Positions 21,425-61,463 of a DNA stretch of 64,000 bases are shown here, piece after piece. The stretch is taken from the NCBI RefSeq assembly GCF_015752205.1, contig NZ_JADOVG010000008.1, positions 124,001 through 188,000 on the forward strand, read 5' to 3'. The first letter of the stretch is position 1; each line of letters starts with the position of its first letter. The position numbers and the translations under genes were made by a program. Source of the DNA: Polaromonas sp. CG_9.7. GTDB taxonomy: Bacteria; Pseudomonadota; Gammaproteobacteria; Burkholderiales; Burkholderiaceae_C. The notes below the pieces were generated by a model that saw nothing but the letters and a program-made list of their open reading frames with translations, searched no databases and had not been told where the DNA came from.

Positions 21425-22312
21425 ATGAGCGCAAACGATCACACCACGGCCCATGAAGAAGCCCACATGGGACCGATCAAAACCCCCCAGCAGCTGCTGG
21501 CCGCGGTTTTTTTCTCTTTTGTTGTTCCGATTTTTGCAATCATTGGCCTGGTTTACTACGTCACCTCGGCCAACAAGCCCATGGCCGGCGCCGATGATGG
21601 TGGCCGCGCCATTGCCGAGCGCATCCAGAAAATCGGCATGGTTGAAATTCGCGATGCAAACCGTCCCCTTCGCGCAGGCGAAGAGGTCTACAAAGCCCAA
21701 TGTGTTGCCTGCCATGCAGCGGGCGTCGCAGGCGCTCCGAAATTCGGCGATGTCTCAGCCTGGGCATCCCGTATTGCCACCGGCTACGACGCACTGCTGA
21801 ATTCAGCACTCAAAGGCAAAGGGGCCATGGCAGCGCAGGGCGGCGGCGACTTTCAGGACGCTGAAATCGGCCGCGCCGTGGTGTACATGACAGCCGCTGC
21901 AGGCGGCAAGTTTGCAGAGCCCGCCGCGCCTGCAGCAGGTGCTGCAGATGCGTCCGCTGCAGCAGCGGCTCCGGCCATGCCAGCGGCGCCTGCCGCAGTG
22001 GTTGCAGCCGCTCCCGCAGCGCCTGCAATGGCCACGGCACCGGCCGCACCCGTCCAAGTGGCAGCCGTCGATTTGGGCGCTGGCGAAACGCTGTACAAGC
22101 AGGCCTGCGTGGCGTGCCATGCGGCTGGCGTGGCTGGCGCGCCAAAGTTCGGCGACAAGGCAGCCTGGGCACCGCGTATCCAGACCGGCATTGAGGCCCT
22201 GACCACCAGCGTCATCAAGGGAAAGGGCGCGATGCCCCCCAAGGGCGGCTCTGCCGGTTCGGACGCAGATATCCATTCTGCGGTGGTCTACATGGTGAAC
22301 GCTGCTAAATAA
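21425..22312 (+). CDS. Membrane-anchored dihaem cytochrome c (c5-like)
   Basis: Electron carrier of 295 residues. An N-terminal membrane anchor (about 27-48) is followed by two class I cytochrome c domains with haem sites CVACH at 93-97 and 228-232, each followed by AAGVAGAPKFGD. The domains are joined by a 50-residue Ala/Pro linker (about 165-215) that acts as a flexible tether in the periplasm. The near-identity of the haem regions points to internal duplication. Likely partners are terminal oxidases. TTGAGGACGCC precedes ATG 21425, and a strong terminator follows. Confidence 0.92.
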   Translation: MSANDHTTAHEEAHMGPIKTPQQLLAAVFFSFVVPIFAIIGLVYYVTSANKPMAGADDGGRAIAERIQKIGMVEIRDANRPLRAGEEVYKAQCVACHAAGVAGAPKFGDVSAWASRIATGYDALLNSALKGKGAMAAQGGGDFQDAEIGRAVVYMTAAAGGKFAEPAAPAAGAADASAAAAAPAMPAAPAAVVAAAPAAPAMATAPAAPVQVAAVDLGAGETLYKQACVACHAAGVAGAPKFGDKAAWAPRIQTGIEALTTSVIKGKGAMPPKGGSAGSDADIHSAVVYMVNAAK

Positions 22313-23027: not shown

Positions 23028-24233
23028 CTAAAGCTGCGCGGCCAGAAAATCCACCACGGCCTCGGGCATGGCGCGCACATGCGCTGGAAAACCCGATGAC
23101 GGAAAGCCGACATGTCCGCCCTGCGCTGGCTGCCACAGCGTCACGTCGGGACTGACATCAACCCTCCGGGGCAGGCTGCCGACCGGAATGAACGGGTCGT
23201 TCAAGGCATTCAGCGCCAGCGCGGGAACGGCAATCTGGCGCAAATACGGTTTGGCCGAGGCACGCGCCCAATAGTCGTCCACGCCCTTGAAACCATGCAC
23301 CGGGCCGGTGAAAATGTTGTCGAACGCATACAAATCGCGGGCTGCCAGCAACGCCGTGCGGTCGAACAGGCCGGGGTGCTGGGCCAGCTTTTGCAGGGCT
23401 TTTGGCCGCATGCTCTTGAGGAACATGCGGGTGTAGACCTGCCGATTGAAGCCGCGCCCGATGGCCCGGCCGCTGGCGGTCAGGTCCAGCGGCGCGCTGA
23501 TCGAAGCGATGGCTGCCACCACCTGGCGGGCGTTATGGCCCATCTCGCCGGCCCAGCGCATCAGCGCATTGCCGCCCAGCGACACACCTGCTGCCAGCAC
23601 CGGCCCGTGGTGCCGGTCGGCAAAGCGCCGGAGGATCCAGTCAATCTCGGCATAATCGCCCGAGTGGTAGGCGCGCGGCGCCAAATTCATTTCGCCCGAG
23701 CAGCCACGAAAATGTGGCACGGCAAAGGCCCAGCCCCGGCAGCCAGCCACGTCGGCAAAGGCTTGGGCATAGTGGCTGCCAGAAGAACCCTCCAGCCCGT
23801 GAAACAGCACCAGCAGCGGTTGTTCCGATGCCTTTTCGGGGCGTACCGAAGCACGCGCATCAGGACCGTTCAAGCCAGGGCCGCAGAATCGGCTTTGCGG
23901 AGCTGCAGGCGCAGCGGCCCCAGCCGCTTCACCAGCCAAGTTCCGGCCGCGGGACTGGCTTTGCCAGACCGCAGGCGGGGTGACCCCCTCGGGGGGCAGG
24001 AAGCTACACGAAGTGAGCGACCGTGGGGGCGCAACATTCAGCAGCGAACCACGCGCAGCGGGGAGCGTGGGAGCTTGAACACTCCAGTCCACATCGACAA
24101 AGTCGCCGTCCGGCGTAGCCCAGCGTTCGCGCTGGAACACGGGCGCCAACCCGGCAAAACGCCGGGCGTGCAGGGCCGCCCAGATGGTCTGCATGTTCCC
24201 CTCGGGCAGCCACCAGGGCGCGCCGTAGTTCAT
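23028..24233 (-). CDS. YheT-family alpha/beta hydrolase with a repeat-derived insertion
   Basis: Alpha/beta hydrolase of the YheT/EMB8 family, about 401 residues from ATG 24233 (a GTG at 24245 is possible). Family landmarks: PWWLPEGNMQTIWAAL (6-21), LFHGLEGSSGSHYA (143-156), nucleophile S218 in GVSLGG, and late Asp and His (NDPFIP, GGHVGF). Substrate is unknown, probably an acyl ester. Between DVDWS and the first core strand there are about 80 extra residues (55-137), Pro/Ser/Ala-rich, encoded by a compound copy of the 90-bp GC-rich repeat; the frame stays open. YheT proteins are usually about 320-340 residues, which fits an insertion. Confidence 0.88.
   Translation of the reverse strand: MNYGAPWWLPEGNMQTIWAALHARRFAGLAPVFQRERWATPDGDFVDVDWSVQAPTLPAARGSLLNVAPPRSLTSCSFLPPEGVTPPAVWQSQSRGRNLAGEAAGAAAPAAPQSRFCGPGLNGPDARASVRPEKASEQPLLVLFHGLEGSSGSHYAQAFADVAGCRGWAFAVPHFRGCSGEMNLAPRAYHSGDYAEIDWILRRFADRHHGPVLAAGVSLGGNALMRWAGEMGHNARQVVAAIASISAPLDLTASGRAIGRGFNRQVYTRMFLKSMRPKALQKLAQHPGLFDRTALLAARDLYAFDNIFTGPVHGFKGVDDYWARASAKPYLRQIAVPALALNALNDPFIPVGSLPRRVDVSPDVTLWQPAQGGHVGFPSSGFPAHVRAMPEAVVDFLAAQL
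23872..24030. repeat. GC-rich dispersed repeat, compound copy inside the YheT-type gene
   Basis: The main copy, about 23948-24030, carries the hallmark GACCCCCTCGGGGGGCAGG and ends GAGCGACCGTGGGGGC. A second partial copy (about 23872-23927: GGGCCGCAGAATCGGC through GCAGCGGCCCC) lies beside it. On the plus strand it has the same orientation as the copies at 49019-49193 and the opposite one to those in the helicase gene. Confidence 0.85.
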
Positions 24234-24248
24234 GTCCGCGCCCACCGG

Positions 24249-27029: not shown

Positions 27030-27719
27030 TTATCGCCTTGGCGGCACGTGCCATACCGCCTGGCCGCCGACGGCATACAGGGAGCGCCCCGGCTGGCGAT
27101 CCACCTGCCAGCCGCCAGTGAATTCGCCAAAGGCCGGCAGCACGGCACAACGCTTGTCAAAACTGAAGCAAGGCAGCCGCAAACGGTCACGGCCCGGCCC
27201 GTGCAGCGTCAGCACGGGGTGCAGATGGCCGGCCAGCACAAAGCGGGCCGCATCGGTTTGCGGATGATGGCAGGCGGCAAACGGGCCCATCGGCCAGGGC
27301 TCGTCGACCACGCGGATATTCAGTGCGGTCGGCGGATCGCCGGCGCGGCTGTCATGGTTGCCACGCACCAGCAGGCATTCCAGCGCGGCATGGCTTCGGC
27401 GCCACAGCGCCAGTTCGGCCAGCAGCGAAGGCGTGCGGGCCTGCGCTGCATGCAAAAAGTCGCCTAAAAACACCAGTTGCGCCGGCTGGTAATGGTCCAG
27501 CAAGACACCCAACCGCGCCAAATTTTCACGCGTCGTACCGGCAGGCACCGGCTGGCCCAGCGCGCGGTAGGTTGCCGCCTTGCCCAAATGCAGGTCCGCC
27601 ACCCACAGCACGCGTTCGGCTGGCCACCACAGCGCATGCTCGGGCAGCAGCCACAGGGTCTCGCCAGCGCATGCAATTGCCAGCGGGCGGCCCAATGCAG
27701 CTTGTTCGGCCAGCATCAC
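27030..27719 (-). CDS. pdeM: Ligase-associated DNA damage response endonuclease PdeM
   Basis: Calcineurin-like metallophosphoesterase, 229 residues. The metal-binding blocks are complete: VADLHLGK (Asp, His), FLGDFLH, RGNHD and AGHLHP. Last gene of the four-gene repair operon with exonuclease, ligase and Lhr-like helicase; it overlaps the helicase stop by 4 bp (ATGA). By family knowledge PdeM is a phosphodiesterase or endonuclease tied to the ligase-associated system. Confidence 0.93.
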
Positions 27720-30658
27720 AAGCCCGGCCTGCGTCCCGTGGCGCGACGCGGTACGCGCTCCTTGCCCGAACCTTTTGCAGCGGAAGGGCGGAACAAGGTG
27801 TCCTGCGAAAACGCCAGCGACCGGCGCACTTTTTCGGCGGCAGCATCGTCGTCGTTGCCCGCATTGCCCGCATCCTGAGTGCCGACCGGATCATCGGCTG
27901 CATGGTCGAGCTGCGCCACCATGCGGGCGATGCGGTCGGCCACGCTTTCGTTCGACAACTGTTCGCGAAAGCGCTCAACCATCAGCGGAAAGGCAAAGGG
28001 CGTGGGCCGGGCCAAGACCTTGAGTTGCAGTTGCTGGCGGTTCATGCGTTCCAGTGCCGCCTGCAGCCGGCCAATCTCCAGTTCCTGTGACAGCAGTTCC
28101 TGTTCGGCCTGCAGCAACAATCGATTGGCTGGATCGTATTTTTTGAACACTTCGTAGAACAACGACGATGAGGCCTGAAGCTGCTTGTTGCTGCGCTTTT
28201 CACCCGGATAACCCTGAAAAACCAGCCCCGCCACACGCGCAATTTCACGAAAGCGGCGCTGCGCCAATTCACTGGCATTCAGGCTGGCCAGCACCTCATG
28301 AAGTAGCTCGCCCCCACGCTCTCCACTGCGTGTGGTTCGCTGCCCTCCAAGGGGGGCGCTGTGCCTGCAGCCCGGCGAAGCCGGTTCCGAGGCCCTGGCT
28401 TGGCTGGAGAAACCGAGTACCTGCGGCAGCAAAGCCGCCCAGTCCACCTCGGTGGCGCTGAGCAACTCGAAACCGTAGTCGTTGACGGCGATGGAAAAGG
28501 TTCGCGGCGCCTGCTGCGCCACGCGCCAGGCCAGCAGGTTGGCCAGGCCCATGTGCACCGGCCGTCCGGCGAATGGATACACAAAAAGATGCCAGCCTTC
28601 GCGGGTGCGCAGCACTTCGGCCAACAGGGTCTGCGGCGTGGGCAAGGCCGACCAGCGCTGCTGGATTTCCAGCAGCGGCCGCATGGCTTTGAGTTCGGGC
28701 GTGTCGTAGTGCCCTTCACTTGCCAGCGCCAGTTGCTGCACCACCGCATTGGCCAGCGTGGTCGACAGCGGCAGACGGCTGCCGCTCCAGCGCGGAATGG
28801 CCGCGCGCTTGCCCGTGGCACGGCGCACCCAGGCGGTCATCTCGTGAATGCGCACCAGCGCCAGCAGCCGGCCGCCGAACAGGAAGCAGTCGCCGGGCTT
28901 CAGGCGCGCGGCAAAGCTTTCCTCCACCGTGCCGACTTTGGCGCCGCCGACATACTGCACCGCCATGCTCGCATCGCTGACGATGGTGCCGATGTTCATG
29001 CGGTGGCGCCGCGCCAGCCGCGCATCGGGGACGCGCCACACGCCCTCCCCGTCGGGCACGGCGCGCCGATAGTCAGGGTACGCGGACAGTGACGCGCCAC
29101 CCTGGGCGACAAAAGACAGGCACCAGTCCCAGTTCTCGCGCGACAGGTCGGCATAGGCGGCCGTGCAGCGCACTTCGGCATACAAGGCCTCTGGCACAAA
29201 GCCGCCGCCCAGCGCCACCGTGACCAGATGTTGCACCAGCACATCCAGCGGCTGGTCGGGCGAAGTGCGCGACTCGATGTGGCCGGCGGCAATCGCCGCC
29301 CGCACCGCCGCGCCTTCGGCCAATTCAATGCCGAGCGTGGGCACCAGCGTGATGCGCGACGGCCGTCCCGGCGCATGGCCCGAGCGGCCAGCGCGCTGGA
29401 GCAGGCGCGCCACACCCTTGGGGGAGCCAATCTGCAGCACGCGCTCGACCGGCAAAAAATCAACGCCCAGGTCCAGGCTGGAAGTGCAGACCACGGCCTT
29501 CAGTTCACCGTTTTTGAGGCCCAGCTCGACCCATTCGCGCACCGCCCGGTCGAGCGAGCCGTGGTGCAGCGCAATCACGCCGGCCCAGTCGGGCCGCGCC
29601 TCCAGCATCGCCTGGTACCAGAGCTCGGCCTGCGAACGGGTGTTGGCAAACACCAGCGTGGTGCTGCTTTTGTCGATTTCCGCGATCACCTGCGGCAGCA
29701 TCGTCAAGCCCAGGTGGCCGGCCCAGGGAAAGCGTTCGGTGCGCTCAGGCAGCAGCGAATCGATCACCAGTTTCTTGGGTACCTGACCCTGGATCAGCAC
29801 GCCGCCGTCATGGCCGAGCAGCGTGTGCATCGCCTCCTGCAAATTGCCCAGCGTCGCCGACATGCCCCAAATTGACAACGCCCCCACGCTTGTCGCTGCG
29901 CGTACTGCGCTGCCCCCCGAGGGGGCCGTTGCGCCTGCGGCCCGGCGAACCCGGTTCCGCGGCCCCGGCTGGGTTAAAGCGCTTGTGGTCTGGTCCATCG
30001 CACTCGCAATGTTCCATGTGTTAAGCCGTGCCAGCGCCAGCTGCACCTGCACGCCCCGCTTGTTGCCGATCAGCTCATGCCATTCATCGACCACGACCAT
30101 CCTGACGCTGCCCAGCACGTCCCGGGCATCGGCGCGCGCCAGCAGCAGCGACAGGCTTTCTGGCGTGGTGACCAGCACTGTCGGCAGCCGCTGGTTCTGG
30201 GCGCTGCGTTCGCCCGCCGGCGTATCGCCGCTGCGCGCGCCGGCGCTCCAGGCGGTGAAGCGTGGCGATCCGTCGTCATTCAAAGCGGCGTTCAAGGCTT
30301 CCAGCGGCGGCAGCAAGGCACGCAGCGTGTCAGCCGCCAAGGCGCGCATCGGCGTGATCCACAGCACGGTCAACGGTGCGGTTGCAGATTTTTTCGGATT
30401 CTTCTGATTTGCTATTTTTTTAATAGCGGCCTGCGCACGGCCCACTTGCGCAAAAGCACTAAAAGCCATCAAGGCACCAAGCCAGACGGCATAGGTCTTG
30501 CCCGCGCCGGTCGTGGCATGCAGCAAGCCGGAGCGGCCTTCGGCGACCGCTTTCCAGGCGTTGCGCTGGAACCTGAAGGGCTTCCAGCCGCGTTCGGCCA
30601 GCCAGGCATCAAGCACTTTTTTTGCCGCTGCGGTCGCCGAAGGTTTGGCCACGGTCAT
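27716..30658 (-). CDS. Ligase-associated DEXH-box helicase (Lhr-like) with three extra segments
   Basis: Superfamily 2 DNA helicase of the Lhr-Core type, 980 residues. Motif I TTGAGKT (49-55), Ia TPMRAL, II DEWH (191-194), III SAT (267-269), then domain 2 ([30 protein letters not shown]) and the C-terminal winged-helix region. Relatives are about 820-880 residues. Three additions fit known repeats: 69-92 (KKIANQ region, 17-bp palindrome), about 220-259 (between motifs II and III) and about 753-785 (near the C-terminal domain), the last two encoded by the 90-bp GC-rich element. All catalytic motifs remain. The protein probably unwinds duplex DNA in alkylation or strand-break repair. ATGA overlaps on both sides. 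Confidence 0.93.
28311..28401. repeat. GC-rich dispersed repeat inside the helicase gene (C-terminal copy)
   Basis: Runs from CCCCCACGCTCTCCACTGCG through CCAAGGGGGGCGCTG to GGTTCCGAGGCCCTGGCTT. In the gene frame it encodes the [10 protein letters not shown] and [13 protein letters not shown] region, residues about 753-782. Confidence 0.9.
29881..29971. repeat. GC-rich dispersed repeat inside the helicase gene (between motifs II and III)
   Basis: Runs from CCCCCACGCTTGTCGCTGCG through CCCCCCGAGGGGGCCG to GGTTCCGCGGCCCCGGCT. In the gene frame it encodes [20 protein letters not shown], residues about 230-259. It is read in a different frame from the copy at 28311. Confidence 0.92.
30411..30427. 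repeat. 17-bp palindrome, family GCTAY-N7-RTAGC (inside helicase gene)
   Basis: GCTATTTTTTTAATAGC. It encodes AIKKIAN, residues about 78-83, inside a 20-25-residue Lys/Ala-rich segment between motifs I and Ia that relatives seem to lack. Confidence 0.75.
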
Positions 30659-32325
30659 CCCGGCAACAGGGCTGACAGCGTTTGCAGCGTGTCGGCGTCA
30701 AGCACCGGCTTGTCTTCGCGCCAGCGCAGCATGCGCGGAAAGCGCACGGCAATGCCGCTCTTGTGGCGCGGGCTGCGGGCAATGCCTTCAAAACCCAGCT
30801 CGAACACCAGCGTCGGCTTGACGCTGCGCACCGGGCCGAAGCTTTCGACCGTGGTCTTGCGAATGATGGCGTCCACCCGCGCCATCTCGGCATCGCTCAA
30901 GCCGGAATAGGCCTTGGCGAAAGGCACCAGCATGCGATCAAGCTGTTCGGGCGGCCCGTCCCACACGGCAAAGGTGTAGTCGCTGTACAGGCTGGCGCGC
31001 CGGCCATGGCCGCGCTGGGCATAAATCAGCACCGCGTCGATGCTCAGCGGATCAATCTTCCACTTCCACCACAGCCCGACGTCCTTGGTACGGCCGACGC
31101 CGTAGGGCGCATCGCGTTGCTTGAGCATCATGCCCTCGACGCCCATGGACCGCGCCGACTCGCGCTGGCGGGCCAGGACCTGCCAGCTCTCGCCCTCAAG
31201 CAGCGGGCTGGGCAACAGTGCGGGGTGGCGCAGGTCGGTCAGCAGGGCGTCCAGCAAGACCCGGCGCTGCGATTGCGGCAGTCCGCGCACATCGCGCTGC
31301 TGCCATTCGAGCAGGTCGTAGGCCAGCAACACCACCGGAATATCGCGCAGCAGCTTGGCGCCCAGCGTCTTGCGTCCGATGCGTTTTTGCAGGTCGGCAA
31401 AGGGCTGCACGCTGCCTTCGCTGCCGGGCTGGTCGGCATTGCCGCGCCAGACCACGATTTCGCCGTCAAGCACCGTGCCGTCGGGCAGCGCAGCGCCCAT
31501 GGCGGCCAGTTCGGGGAAGCGCTCGGTCAACAGCTCCTCACCGCGCGACCACAGCCACACCTGGCCGGCGCGCTTGACCAGCTGGGCGCGTATGCCGTCC
31601 CATTTCCATTCGATGATCCAGTTTTGGGGCGGACCCAGCAGCATGTCGAACTGGTCCAGCGGCTGGTTGAACGGATGGGCCAGAAAAAACGGATACGGCT
31701 GGCTGCTGGTTTGCGGGTTCAGCTCGCCAGGGCTTTCCAGCGCGACCAGCGCGGCATAGTCGGCCGCACTCGGCTGGCCGCTGATGTGCGTGTAACCCAT
31801 CAGCCGCTGGGCCACCCGCTTGGCATCGACACCGGCGACAGCCGCCAGCGCTTGCGTGACCTGCAGCCGCGACACACCGACGCGAAAGCCACCGGTGATG
31901 AGCTTGAAATAAACCAGCCGCTCATCCAGTGCCAGTTGGCTCCATTGCTGACGCAGCAGCTCAGGCAGGTCGTCGGGCGCGGTCTTGCGCAGGGGCAGCA
32001 AGTGCTGCTCGATCCAGGTGGCCAGGCCGATGTCATGGCGGCCCGTGGGTGGAGGCAGCAGCAGCGCCATGGTTTCGGCCAGGTCGCCGACCGAATCGTA
32101 GCTCTCGTCAAACAGCCACTCGGGCAAGCCGGCGGCATCCTGCGCCATTTGGCGCAGCACTTTGCTCGCCACCAGCTGGCGCGGTTTGCCGCCCGCCAGA
32201 AAATACACCGCCCAGGCGGCATCGGCTGGTGCCGCGTCCTGCAGATAACGCCGCAGTGCCGCCTGCTTCGCCAGGCTCGACGTGGTGGCGTCCAGTTCGC
32301 GGTAAAGGGCCGCAAAGGCTTTCAT
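30655..32325 (-). CDS. ATP-dependent DNA ligase (bacterial repair type)
   Basis: Ligase of 556 residues sealing nicks with ATP. An N-terminal DNA-binding domain (1-200) precedes the adenylation domain with K241 in motif I (EWKWDGIR), [29 protein letters not shown], and an OB-fold domain to the end. It is the ligase around which the exonuclease, helicase and PdeM cluster. It overlaps exonuclease and helicase genes by 4 bp on either side. Confidence 0.95.
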
Positions 32326-36499: not shown

Positions 36500-36507
36500 C
36501 TAGATTA

Positions 36508-36598
36508 CCCCCACGCTGTTCACTTCGTGTAATGCGCTGCCCCCCGAGGGGGCCGCTGCGCCTGCGGTCCGGCAGAGCCGGTTCCGCGGCCCCTGCTT
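36508..36598. repeat. GC-rich dispersed repeat between atpA and atpG
   Basis: Runs from CCCCCACGCTGTTCACTTCG through CCCCCCGAGGGGGCCGCTG to GAGCCGGTTCCGCGGCCCCTG. Same orientation on the plus strand as the two helicase copies. It lies in the transcribed spacer of the operon and can fold into strong GC hairpins. Confidence 0.92.
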
Positions 36599-36652
36599 GA
36601 TGGGCCTTGTCCTCAGAGTTGTTGCTGCGCTCATCGTTCGATTTCGGTTTGC

Positions 36653-48901: not shown

Positions 48902-49018
48902 GTGCGGCTCCTGATGAAGTGGCTAAAACTGCAAAAGCGCCAGTTGCAAACCAGCCCCCTTCCCAACCTTCCCCAAGCCGAGCAAGAAACAATACCGGAC
49001 GGATTGCGCCTTATGCAA

Positions 49019-49193
49019 GCAGGGGCCGCGGAACCGGCTCCGCCGGGCCGCAGGGGCAGCGACCCCCTCGGGGGGCAGGGAGCTACACGCAGTGAGCGAC
49101 CGTGGGGGCAACGCTCACGGCTTTGCCGGGCCGCAGGCGCAGCGGCCCCCTCGGGGGGCAGGGAGCTACACGCAGTGAGCGACCGTGGGGGCA
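49019..49193. repeat. GC-rich dispersed repeat, tandem pair between ptsH and ptsI
   Basis: Two copies in the same orientation: about 49019-49110 (GGGGCCGCGGAACCGGC through CCGTGGGGGC) and 49119-49193 (shorter at its left end, GCTTTGCCGGGCCGC through CCGTGGGGGC). They are nearly identical over GGGGGGCAGGGAGCTACACG and the following CAGTGAGCGACC. Orientation is the same as the YheT-type copy. They fill most of the ptsH-ptsI spacer, which would otherwise be about 110 bp. Confidence 0.95.
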
Positions 49194-59651: not shown

Positions 59652-61463
59652 ATGACCACGTCAGATAAACTTGCAAAGTTTTTAAAAACCAGATGGACAA
59701 GCAAGTTTGCTGCTTTACTGCTGCTTATGGGAATCAGCCATTCAGCCATGGCGCAGACCTGTGCAGTCAGTCCAAATTGGGCGCAGGCTAGCTCTTACGC
59801 AGTCGGAAGTATTGTCAAATATACAGATGAAAATCTATATATTGCCAAAGTACTCACACAACCCGGTATTCGACCCACCATTAGCACTTATTACTGGGCG
59901 TTGAAATCAACGTGTACGGCGCCAACGCCAACGCCAACGCCAACGCCAACGCCTACACCAGTACCGGCACCTGCCGTTGTCTGTGGAAGCACTGTATGGG
60001 TGACGGGACGGCAATATGTCGCCGGAAACGTTGTCTCCTACACGGATGGCAACCTGTATGTCGCCAAGTTCAGCAACCCCGGTTACAACCCGACCGTCAG
60101 CACCTACTTCTGGTCGCGTTACTCGTGCGCGCCTACGCCTACGCCTACGCCTACGCCTACGCCTACGCCTACGCCTACGCCTACGCCTACGCCTACGCCT
60201 ACGCCTACGCCTACGCCTGCGCCTACGCCTGCGCCTACTGGTGTTTGCACAAGCACTGTGTGGGTCGCCGGACGGCAATATGTCGCCGGGAATGTTGTCT
60301 CCTATACGGATGGCAACCTGTATATTGCCAAATTCAACAACCCAGGCTACAACCCGACCATCAGCACTTACTTCTGGTCGCGTTATCTATGCAGCCCTGC
60401 GCCAACACCAACACCAACACCAACACCAACACCAACACCAACACCAACACCAACACCAGCACCCACGCCTGTACCCACACCAGCGGTTAAATTTCATGGT
60501 CGATTTGACTTCACCAATCCAGCAGCGCCCCGTTACTCCTGGTCCGGATCTTCCATGTCGGCGCAGTTCACGGGCACTTCAATCTCGGTCACATTGAATG
60601 AATCGGACGCCCGGGTTTACTATGCCTATGTGATCGATGATCAGCCGGTCAAGAGGTTTTCAGTTTCTGCCGGCACCAATGTGTACACCTTGGCCACCGG
60701 TTTGAGCAATGGCACGCACAAGGTGCTGCTGATGCGAGAGTCTGAAGGCCATCAGGCAGGCCCTTCGCAGTTCGTGGGTTTTTCGTTGGATGGAACAGGC
60801 CAGCTTATGCAGCCCCCTGAATACCCCAACAAATACCGTCTGGAGTTTGTCGGAGACTCGTTCACTGCGGGGTTCGGCAATATCGGCGTGCAGCCTTGCG
60901 GATTTTCTACTGAAACCGAAAGTGCCTTTTGGTCGTACGCCCAGCAAACAGCACTGCAGCTGGGTGAAGCGCCTGCGACAAATATCAGTATTTCAGGCAT
61001 CGGGATCTATCGCAACAACGGCGATGCGGGTCCGACAGCCAGCAATCCGTCAATGCCTTTTTACTATCCTCGAAACCTGACTGGCGAAGCAAACAGCCCG
61101 GGCGCGCCTTCCATCGTTCCGGCAATGCAGCCAACGGTCGTGGTCGTGTATCTAGGAACCAATGATTTTTGGAACGGACCGCCAAATCAGACAGATTTCG
61201 TTACTGCCTATGTCGAACTTTTCAAAACCATTCGCGCACGTTATCCATCGGCGATGCTCATTGCAGCGACTCATACGGGAAGCGAGCAGCAAGGCTATGT
61301 ACAAGCGGCTTATAACCAGATGCTCAACAGTGGCGAAACAAAAATTCGCTATGCTGACTTCTTGATCAGGGACTGGAACGGCTGCAGCGGCCATCCCACC
61401 AAGGCCGCTGACCTGGAGATCGCGAACTATCTTGCGCAGTTCATTCGAAACCTGGGGCTTTGA
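59652..61463 (+). CDS. Secreted modular SGNH esterase with three carbohydrate-binding-like modules
   Basis: 603 residues: signal peptide (cleaves after A34), three about 50-residue modules (36-87, 110-160, 200-250) with the chitin/cellulose-binding pattern W...YxxGxxVxYxxxxYxAK...PGxxPxxSTYxW, joined by Pro-Thr linkers (89-108, 160-198, 250-279). Then a beta-sandwich (281-390) and an SGNH hydrolase with nucleophile S405 (GDSFTAGFG), GTND (504-507) and H583 (GHPT). The two-domain layout recalls carbohydrate esterase family 2 (acetyl-xylan esterases). It probably deacetylates polysaccharide outside the cell. Linker DNA consists of hexanucleotide repeats. Confidence 0.88.
   Translation: MTTSDKLAKFLKTRWTSKFAALLLLMGISHSAMAQTCAVSPNWAQASSYAVGSIVKYTDENLYIAKVLTQPGIRPTISTYYWALKSTCTAPTPTPTPTPTPTPVPAPAVVCGSTVWVTGRQYVAGNVVSYTDGNLYVAKFSNPGYNPTVSTYFWSRYSCAPTPTPTPTPTPTPTPTPTPTPTPTPTPTPAPTPAPTGVCTSTVWVAGRQYVAGNVVSYTDGNLYIAKFNNPGYNPTISTYFWSRYLCSPAPTPTPTPTPTPTPTPTPTPAPTPVPTPAVKFHGRFDFTNPAAPRYSWSGSSMSAQFTGTSISVTLNESDARVYYAYVIDDQPVKRFSVSAGTNVYTLATGLSNGTHKVLLMRESEGHQAGPSQFVGFSLDGTGQLMQPPEYPNKYRLEFVGDSFTAGFGNIGVQPCGFSTETESAFWSYAQQTALQLGEAPATNISISGIGIYRNNGDAGPTASNPSMPFYYPRNLTGEANSPGAPSIVPAMQPTVVVVYLGTNDFWNGPPNQTDFVTAYVELFKTIRARYPSAMLIAATHTGSEQQGYVQAAYNQMLNSGETKIRYADFLIRDWNGCSGHPTKAADLEIANYLAQFIRNLGL
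59916..59975. repeat. CCAACG hexanucleotide repeat, Pro-Thr linker 1
   Basis: Five CCA ACG units followed by CCT ACA, encoding the first Pro-Thr linker of the secreted esterase. Confidence 0.9.
60129..60245. repeat. CCTACG hexanucleotide repeat, Pro-Thr linker 2
   Basis: About fifteen CCT ACG units, then CCT GCG variants, encoding the long second Pro-Thr linker. Confidence 0.9.
60399..60488. repeat. CCAACA hexanucleotide repeat, Pro-Thr linker 3
   Basis: About nine CCA ACA units encoding the third Pro-Thr linker. Its unit differs at one position from linker 1 and at two from linker 2. Confidence 0.9.

What the first reader, a model, noticed from the sequence alone, without database searches (positions are those of the whole stretch)
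29881..29971. A 90-bp GC-rich repeat inserted in frame between helicase motifs II and III
The Lhr-like helicase carries about 40 extra residues between DEWH (191-194) and SAT (267-269), encoded by a copy of a repeat that also occurs outside genes (36508, 49019). Seen directly: repeat similarity and an open frame through it. Known: relatives have a short loop here and this distance is normally tight. Inferred: the element inserted into a conserved gene and was tolerated as a surface loop, as in Rickettsia palindromic elements. Insertion between two catalytic motifs makes retained activity surprising.
Basis: partly seen in the sequence, partly recalled or inferred. Interest (0 to 1): 0.85.

Follow-up and report, generated by a model that had tools for sequence, protein, structure and literature searches.

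The report
Mobile DNA repeats inside essential proteins
In this bacterium (Polaromonas-like) a short hairpin-forming DNA repeat found at about a hundred places in the genome also sits, in frame, inside loops of conserved enzymes such as this DNA-repair helicase, and related species carry different copies in the same loops, sometimes turned the other way round.

Summary
The ligase-associated Lhr-type helicase (TIGR04121) has 72 residues between DEWH and SAT; 100 of 115 distinct sequences compared have exactly 30. The 42 extra residues are a leader plus one copy of a 93-99 nt three-hairpin repeat with 113 model matches in the genome. A second copy lies in the same helicase at 28310-28408, and an unrelated repeat in a third loop. 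The repeat also lies in frame in FdhD, PurL, PriA, CydA and other conserved proteins. In relatives the same loops are empty, filled in either orientation, or filled by another repeat. The helicase is under purifying selection (omega 0.11-0.13), but the insert is conserved more as DNA than as protein. The element is very probably the published Beta-proteobacterial repeat element BRE (Hot et al. 2011), whose authors noted copies inside coding sequences; the behaviour resembles Rickettsia palindromic elements. New are the housekeeping targets, repeated use of the same loops, both orientations, and DNA-level homogeneity. Translation and activity were not tested.

The parts
27716..30658 (-). Ligase-associated DNA damage response DEXH-box (Lhr-type) helicase, 980 aa, host gene of the insertions
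   Evidence: TIGR04121, 1048 bits against cut-off 850; Pfam WH_Lhr, DEAD_assoc, DEAD, Helicase_C
29879..29978 (+). Copy of the ~93-99 nt GC-rich three-hairpin repeat (probable BRE) at helicase site B, between motifs II and III; read on the minus strand as [31 protein letters not shown]
   Evidence: (C8:153880-153978)
29972..30013 (-). 14-codon leader [14 protein letters not shown] (residues 216-229), part of the extra segment but not repeat; diverges quickly among relatives
28310..28408 (+). Second copy of the same repeat in the same helicase (site C, residues 751-783), read in another frame as [26 protein letters not shown]
   Evidence: (C8:152310-152408)
30408..30460 (.). Core of a copy of a second, unrelated dispersed AT-hairpin repeat at site A, in the loop between motifs I and Ia
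   Evidence: 14 further partial matches in own genome; loop-length variation in homologues
36507..36605 (+). Intergenic copy of the repeat
   Evidence: C8:160507-160605
49010..49109 (-). Intergenic copy of the repeat (first of two in tandem)
   Evidence: C8:173010-173109
49110..49192 (-). Intergenic copy of the repeat (second of two in tandem)
   Evidence: C8:173110-173192
23931..24030 (-). Copy of the repeat, probably upstream of an alpha/beta hydrolase gene
   Evidence: C8:147931-148030; one search places the hydrolase domain at residues 143-381 of ORF 23028-24245
30655..32325 (-). ATP-dependent DNA ligase of the same operon
   Evidence: TIGR04120
32322..33452 (-). Ligase-associated exonuclease of the same operon
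   Evidence: TIGR04122
27030..27719 (-). Ligase-associated endonuclease PdeM of the same operon
   Evidence: TIGR04123

Best explanation
The segment is one of about a hundred copies of a dispersed, hairpin-forming, GC-rich repeat (very probably BRE) that has come to lie in frame in a permissive surface loop of a working helicase. Because the repeat is about 74% GC and poor in stop codons, most full-length copies can be read through in any given frame, giving a short Ala/Pro/Gly/Ser/Arg-rich stretch predicted to be disordered. It is tolerated where it falls in a turn between secondary-structure elements. The same few loops have been used repeatedly within the genus, in both orientations, in more than one frame and by more than one repeat family. 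The in-gene copy stays close to the family consensus as DNA, most likely because copies are replaced by fresh insertion or by gene conversion from other copies. Shown: presence, openness, absence in homologues, the other genes, the orientation mixture, DNA-level rather than protein-level conservation. Inferred: translation of the loop, retained enzyme activity, the mobility mechanism, and replacement as the cause of homogeneity.
For: 113 model matches. Spacing 30 in 100 of 115 rows against 72 here. In-frame copies in FdhD (four in tandem), PurL, PriA, CydA, an alpha/beta hydrolase, a GT9 glycosyltransferase, an HlyD-type protein, a two-domain FAD/FMN protein, a sulfate transporter (five partial copies in tandem) and, less surely placed, the GlnE N-terminus. 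With the own genome included in each count, the repeat is found in 4 of 20 cydA, 4 of 22 purL, 15 of 22 priA and 15 of 22 fdhD rows. Orientation is mixed at helicase site B (6 state changes) and at the second PriA loop. Purifying selection on the helicase outside the inserts: omega 0.108-0.129 in the six insert-bearing pairs. Insert third positions 84-94% identical while flanking third positions are 47-88% and the leader 40-88%. Element identity exceeds flanking third-position identity in 121 of 125 same-site pairs. Same-site copies of different genomes are hardly more alike (median 0.856) than copies at different sites (0.837). Low predicted confidence at both inserts. Covarying hairpins.
Against: No expression, proteomic or biochemical evidence. 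No mobility gene was linked: the one Y1_Tnp gene found in the genome has no copy of the repeat in the 3.7 kb fetched around it. Presence alone needs only 2 changes on the tree, and all five same-orientation 72-residue alleles have a leader of the same length, partly recognisable, so for these an old insertion with losses, or transfer between lineages, is as good as repeated insertion. Copies at site B are somewhat closer within an orientation (0.864) than between orientations (0.813), so some site history remains. The element is less conserved than first and second codon positions of the flanks (medians 0.88-0.97). Four of 125 pairs do not show higher element than flanking third-position identity. 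Selection on nucleic-acid structure could also explain the DNA-level conservation. Low pLDDT may partly reflect few aligned sequences over the inserts, and six other segments also fall below 50. The proteins compared were picked as open frames, so their openness is not an unbiased result.
Confidence: 0.82

Rival explanations
1. The repeat is kept inside genes because its hairpins do something as RNA or DNA in place (mRNA processing or stability, pausing, a small RNA), so selection acts on the nucleic acid and the peptide is a by-product.
For: 13 of 25 pairs show changes on both sides, 153 such cells against a shuffled mean of 50.4, none of 500 shuffles as high, and slid controls far lower. Third positions of the insert are conserved. 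A BRE-containing region gives an 80-nt RNA on Northern blots in Bordetella (PMC3110155, section 14 and passages read).
Against: The alignment was fitted to the model's structure, and the copies are related. A single copy folds no better than dinucleotide shuffles (z -0.39). Several relatives have the same genes without the element. Either strand of the repeat can be the coding one at the same site.
Confidence: 0.25
2. The inserts descend vertically from one ancient insertion per site; orientation differences come from inversion or from an original array with different copies lost.
For: Presence needs only 2 changes. Leader of equal length in QUERY, L120, L009, L011 and L013. L121 and L058 hold more than one partial copy. 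Same-orientation copies at site B are somewhat closer to each other (0.864) than opposite ones (0.813).
Against: Orientation alternates within a nine-row clade (6 changes in three states; starred branches force at least 4 for one state and 3 for the other). Same-site copies are hardly closer to each other than to other sites. The window copy is nearer to its best dispersed copies in its own genome (92.6-94.3%) than to the same site in L009 (91.4%) or L120 (87.5%) (the dispersed set is larger, which favours it).
Confidence: 0.3
3. The insert is a selected protein module that changes helicase behaviour.
For: It is kept over synonymous divergences of about 0.4-0.9 in the flanks.
Against: First and second codon positions are less conserved than third positions in 8 of 10 pairs and equal in 2; insert omega is at or above 1 in the ten pairs (28 codons, few sites). 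At the same site relatives encode unrelated peptides from the opposite strand. The helicase reads the repeat in different frames at its two sites.
Confidence: 0.05
4. The insert is not in the mature protein: it is bypassed by the ribosome or removed, or the gene is decaying.
For: Palindromes skipped by ribosomes are known in a yeast mitochondrion (mentioned in PMC6649704, passage read).
Against: Open alleles of length divisible by three were found in many genomes, whereas dispersed copies are not held to this (46 of 91 full-length model hits divisible by three); but open frames were what I selected, and one locus (L130) without a usable frame was dropped. Omega 0.11-0.13 argues against decay. 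The operon partners match their family models nearly end to end.
Confidence: 0.06

Closest known systems
Beta-proteobacterial repeat element, BRE (Hot et al. 2011, PMC3110155; section 14 read in full, other passages read)
   Same: About 90 bp, GC-rich, dispersed in Betaproteobacteria, 29 copies reported in Polaromonas sp. JS666, tandem groups, some copies entirely within coding sequences
   Different: In the parts read, no conserved enzymes, frames or loops are named and tolerance, orientation within genes or codon-position patterns are not analysed. Its sequence figure and supplement were not readable here, so identity is inferred from description.
Rickettsia palindromic elements, RPE (passages of review PMC10969869 read; original papers not read, known from recall)
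   Same: Short palindromic repeats inserted in frame into unrelated conserved genes
   Different: According to the review passage RPEs encode a conserved peptide; here both strands and several frames are used, the same loops are reused across species, and the genus is not Rickettsia
Enterobacterial RU-1/RU-2/RU-3 intragenic elements (PMC2759123, abstract and outline read)
   Same: Small mobile repeats with open frames found within annotated genes
   Different: Different repeat family and host group; as far as the abstract and outline show, no repeated use of one loop in core enzymes
M. smegmatis Lhr, PDB 5v9x
   Same: Closest solved structure of the host protein (E 8.9e-42, TM 0.78 by target length)
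   Different: Its first local sequence alignment ends at residue 246, inside the extra segment

Membership tests
BRE | Repeat of about 90 bp, GC-rich | tested here: met
   93-99 nt; 82 strong matches 66-80% GC
BRE | Many copies in Betaproteobacteria including Polaromonas | tested here: met
   113 matches in own genome; 102 of 120 genomes of the family match at E<=0.001, outside the genus mostly with much lower scores in the (capped) list; strict filters, 34 candidates scored per genome
BRE | Tandem groups with few or no bases between copies | tested here: met
   33 neighbouring pairs of model hits with starts under 130 nt apart, 3 of them in opposite orientation and some overlapping or short
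BRE | Sequence identity with the published BRE alignment | not testable with these tools
   Figure 6 and supplements could not be read; no Bordetella sequence was fetched by name
Rickettsia palindromic element | Palindromic repeat inserted in frame in conserved genes | tested here: met
Rickettsia palindromic element | One conserved encoded peptide | tested here: not met
   Both orientations and several frames
Rickettsia palindromic element | Sequence homology to RPE families | not tested
   No RPE sequences were fetched
REP/RAYT system | Copies flanking a Y1 (RAYT) transposase gene | tested here: not met
   One Y1_Tnp gene found in the genome; no copy in 3701 bp around it, nor in 3501 bp around that of G244
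MITE | Terminal inverted repeats and target-site duplication | tested here: inconclusive
   No obvious terminal inverted repeat in the consensus (by eye); filled and empty sites too diverged to see a duplication (by eye)
TIGR04121 ligase-associated DEXH helicase | Score above the equivalog cut-off and operon partners | tested here: met
   1048 against 850 bits; ligase, exonuclease and PdeM adjacent

The most novel reading that the evidence does not exclude
In this genus certain loops of core enzymes (Lhr-type helicase, PriA, FdhD, PurL, CydA) act as docking sites for mobile palindromic repeats. The inserted copies are continually replaced or overwritten from the genome-wide pool, so that a stretch of an essential protein evolves in concert with non-coding repeats instead of with its own gene.
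Probability: 0.35. Interest if true: 0.82.

Novelty: new variant of a known kind. Interest (0 to 1): 0.64.

Why it matters
It extends repeat insertion into proteins, best known from Rickettsia, to conserved enzymes of Polaromonas. It gives natural, replicated experiments on which protein loops tolerate roughly 30 to 110 foreign residues, including the turn just before motif III of two SF2 helicases. It also provides cases where codon positions and DNA-level constraint can be separated within one open frame, so the question whether such inserts are tolerated parasites, converted copies or functional RNA structures can be tested.

Tried and rejected
A known RNA family: at Rfam's gathering thresholds the window has only one tRNA. 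A RAYT/REP link: no copy of the repeat beside the Y1 transposase gene of this genome or of G244. Unusual folding stability of a single copy: not better than dinucleotide shuffles. Special openness of the repeat: each of the six frames is open in 64-84 of 91 full-length copies, against 67% for random sequence of that composition, so openness is mostly a matter of GC content. Frame preference: 10 of the 11 sites in domain-supported genes scanned use three of six orientation/phase classes, GlnE being the exception, but the classes were chosen after the fact and some copies shift frame inside, so this is only suggestive. L013 as a clean independent insertion: rejected as unproven. Literature on in-frame palindromic insertion in Polaromonas, Comamonadaceae or proteobacteria: one search listed 2 papers (one is the BRE paper), none, two, and one search found 100 papers of which I saw 10 in the listing; none of those seen describes this pattern. 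Most subscription papers are not in the library.

Full report
Check of the observation. The window is positions 124001-188000 of contig C8 of a 4.15 Mb genome whose nearest named relatives are Polaromonas. ORF 27716-30658 on the minus strand encodes 980 residues without a stop. It is the ligase-associated DEXH helicase TIGR04121 (1048 bits, cut-off 850), next to the ligase, the exonuclease and PdeM of the same system. Between DEWH (191-194) and SAT (267-269) lie 72 residues. Of 115 distinct rows (126 loci examined, one without a usable frame and 11 duplicates dropped, plus the window), 100 have exactly 30 and 15, the window among them, differ. The extra 42 residues are made of a 14-residue leader (216-229) and about 31 residues encoded by the repeat, replacing a short turn.

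The repeat. Fourteen copies align in 111 columns, 39 of them invariant, and share three hairpins. A covariance model of 99 positions finds 113 matches in the genome (150 of 3794 candidates scored; some matches are partial or weak). On 82 strong matches (80 distinct) from 61 fetched stretches, 13 of 25 pairs change on both sides somewhere, with 153 such cells against 50.4 in shuffles (none of 500 as high); slid versions fall to 35-54% paired against 96.4%. Two cautions apply: that alignment was fitted to the model, and the copies are related. A single copy is no more stable than its shuffles (z -0.39). At gathering thresholds Rfam has no match for it.

More than one insertion in the helicase. 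The same protein carries a second copy at 28310-28408 (residues 751-783), read on the same strand in another frame. A third loop, between motifs I and Ia, holds a copy of an unrelated AT-hairpin repeat with 14 further partial matches in the genome (40 of 93 candidates scored).

Other genes of the same genome. Of 112 copies with surroundings fetched at the time (the last of the 113 came), 72 lie in some frame with at least 30 codons on both sides, which is an upper bound because such frames are common at this GC. I scanned 30 of the spanning frames, mostly the longest, with Pfam and 12 gave a family. In eight the copy lies inside a domain, between domains, or just behind a partly matched domain with over 100 residues still to come: FdhD (four copies in tandem), PurL, PriA, CydA, an alpha/beta hydrolase, a GT9 glycosyltransferase, an HlyD-type protein and an FAD/FMN two-domain protein. 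A ninth, a sulfate transporter, has five partial copies in tandem between its transporter and STAS domains, all in frame. In GlnE two copies lie near the N-terminus. In the last two, a histidine kinase and a second hydrolase, the copy lies before the first domain and may be outside the gene. The other 18 frames have no Pfam support at E<=0.0001 and may not be genes.

Relatives, gene by gene. Four of these proteins were searched in 22 genomes, own included. The profile finds the repeat in 4 of 20 cydA rows (21 genomes matched, 20 frames extracted), 4 of 22 purL rows, 15 of 22 priA rows, 15 of 22 fdhD rows and 10 of 115 helicase rows. The alignments show that the inserts fall in the same loops. 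PriA has two loops. The first, just before its GSAT motif III, is filled in 8 rows, always from one orientation. The second, after RYQRL-M-ER-IG, is filled from both orientations. At the purL loop four further genomes carry a different segment (TPALSPEGRG...PLPLGEGRGEG and similar). BLAST among the 302 loci held finds its relatives at many unrelated places and on both strands, so it is another palindromic repeat (not searched genome-wide). The alleles L010, L012 and L058 of helicase site B have a related PPLGEGRDGG segment beside the main repeat.

History at helicase site B. On a tree of 63 of the 115 rows (52 left out: many Variovorax, the more distant groups, and a few incomplete or oddly aligned rows), insert presence needs 2 changes. 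Presence with orientation needs 6, and the two orientations alternate inside a nine-row clade (quick search, LG+G4, SH-aLRT only). L013 sits apart with L054 and L090, which are empty, yet has a leader of the same length, partly like that of the main clade, so transfer between lineages or old presence with losses is possible. I therefore claim repeated change of content at the site, not a count of insertions.

Selection. Outside the inserts the helicase has omega 0.108-0.129 in six pairs of insert-bearing sequences; four pairs without the repeat at site B give 0.035-0.128. The gene is maintained. Inside the insert (28 codons) synonymous differences are 0.04-0.14 per site, against 0.29-0.53 in the core of the insert-bearing pairs. 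Across ten pairs, third positions of the element are 84-94% identical, those of the 300-nt flanks 47-88%, and the leader 40-88% overall; in the element, first and second positions are less conserved than third positions in 8 pairs and equal in 2. In 121 of 125 same-site pairs from five genes, element identity exceeds third-position identity of the flanks, while it stays below first-and-second-position identity there at the median (the pairs are not independent). Same-site copies from different genomes have median identity 0.856 (143 pairs), different-site copies 0.837 (677 pairs), and dispersed copies of this genome 0.806 (4045 pairs). At helicase site B, same-orientation copies (0.864) are closer than opposite ones (0.813). 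The in-gene copies therefore keep only a little memory of their site. Replacement (new insertion or gene conversion) or selection on nucleic-acid structure could each do this; I favour replacement because orientation and repeat subtype also switch.

Structure. AlphaFold with 42 sequences gives mean pLDDT 75.9 and pTM 0.76. Residues 232-258 and 758-778 fall below 50, between helix 200-229 and strand 262-267, and between helices 740-748/752-756 and 778-792; six other segments, chiefly the C-terminus 926-980, are also below 50. The best solved match is mycobacterial Lhr 5v9x. Both inserts are thus predicted as loops without fixed structure. Low confidence is also expected where few sequences align.

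What is known. Hot et al. 2011 (PMC3110155; section 14 read in full) named a repeat of about 90 bp BRE, counted 29 copies in Polaromonas sp. JS666, saw tandem groups, and remarked that some copies lie entirely within coding sequences. I take the present repeat to be BRE from size, composition, host and arrangement; the printed sequences could not be read. In-frame palindromic inserts are established for Rickettsia (review passages), and intragenic small repeats for enterobacteria (abstract and outline). In the listings (10 of 100 papers seen) and 91 I did not find the pattern described here: core enzymes, shared loops, both orientations, several repeat families, and DNA-level homogeneity.

Verdict. 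It is a new variant of a known kind, with real interest as a replicated natural experiment, but translation and activity are still inferred.

Noticed in passing
window 30388-30482: Loop between helicase motifs I and Ia holds a copy of a second dispersed repeat (AT hairpin TGCTATTTTTTTAATAGC) with 14 further partial matches in the genome; several Polaromonas relatives and a Giesbergeria have AIKK/AIKN-type segments here.
   Followed up: partly
L233, L234, L235, L237 (PurL) and L010, L012, L058 (helicase site B): A third, palindromic repeat family, encoding TPALSPEGRG / PLPLGEGRGEG or PPLGEGRDGG, lies at or beside the same loops; relatives of it occur many times around the helicase in Variovorax loci.
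   Followed up: partly
L148:2501-2895: FdhD of the own genome carries four copies in tandem with 99-108 nt spacing, making a 33-residue protein repeat inside the domain.
   Followed up: partly
L167:2501-2891: Sulfate transporter of the own genome has five half-length copies in tandem every 84 nt, encoding a 28-residue protein repeat between the transporter and STAS domains.
   Followed up: partly
G237:C60:28596-31376 (L130): Helicase homologue whose middle part lies in a different frame from its two ends; possible frameshift or assembly error; left out of all counts.
   Followed up: no
window 59920-60447: A 264-nt unit duplicated in tandem (78% identity) in ORF 59652-61463, beside the lowest-GC stretch of the window (48% at 58-60 kb).
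   Followed up: no
window 21701-22201: Two related 96-nt stretches (73%) 405 nt apart whose translation resembles repeated cytochrome c domains (reading by eye).
   Followed up: no
L113 (G009): Helicase homologue with an unrelated 20-residue insert at the same motif II-III loop, in which the repeat profile finds nothing.
   Followed up: no
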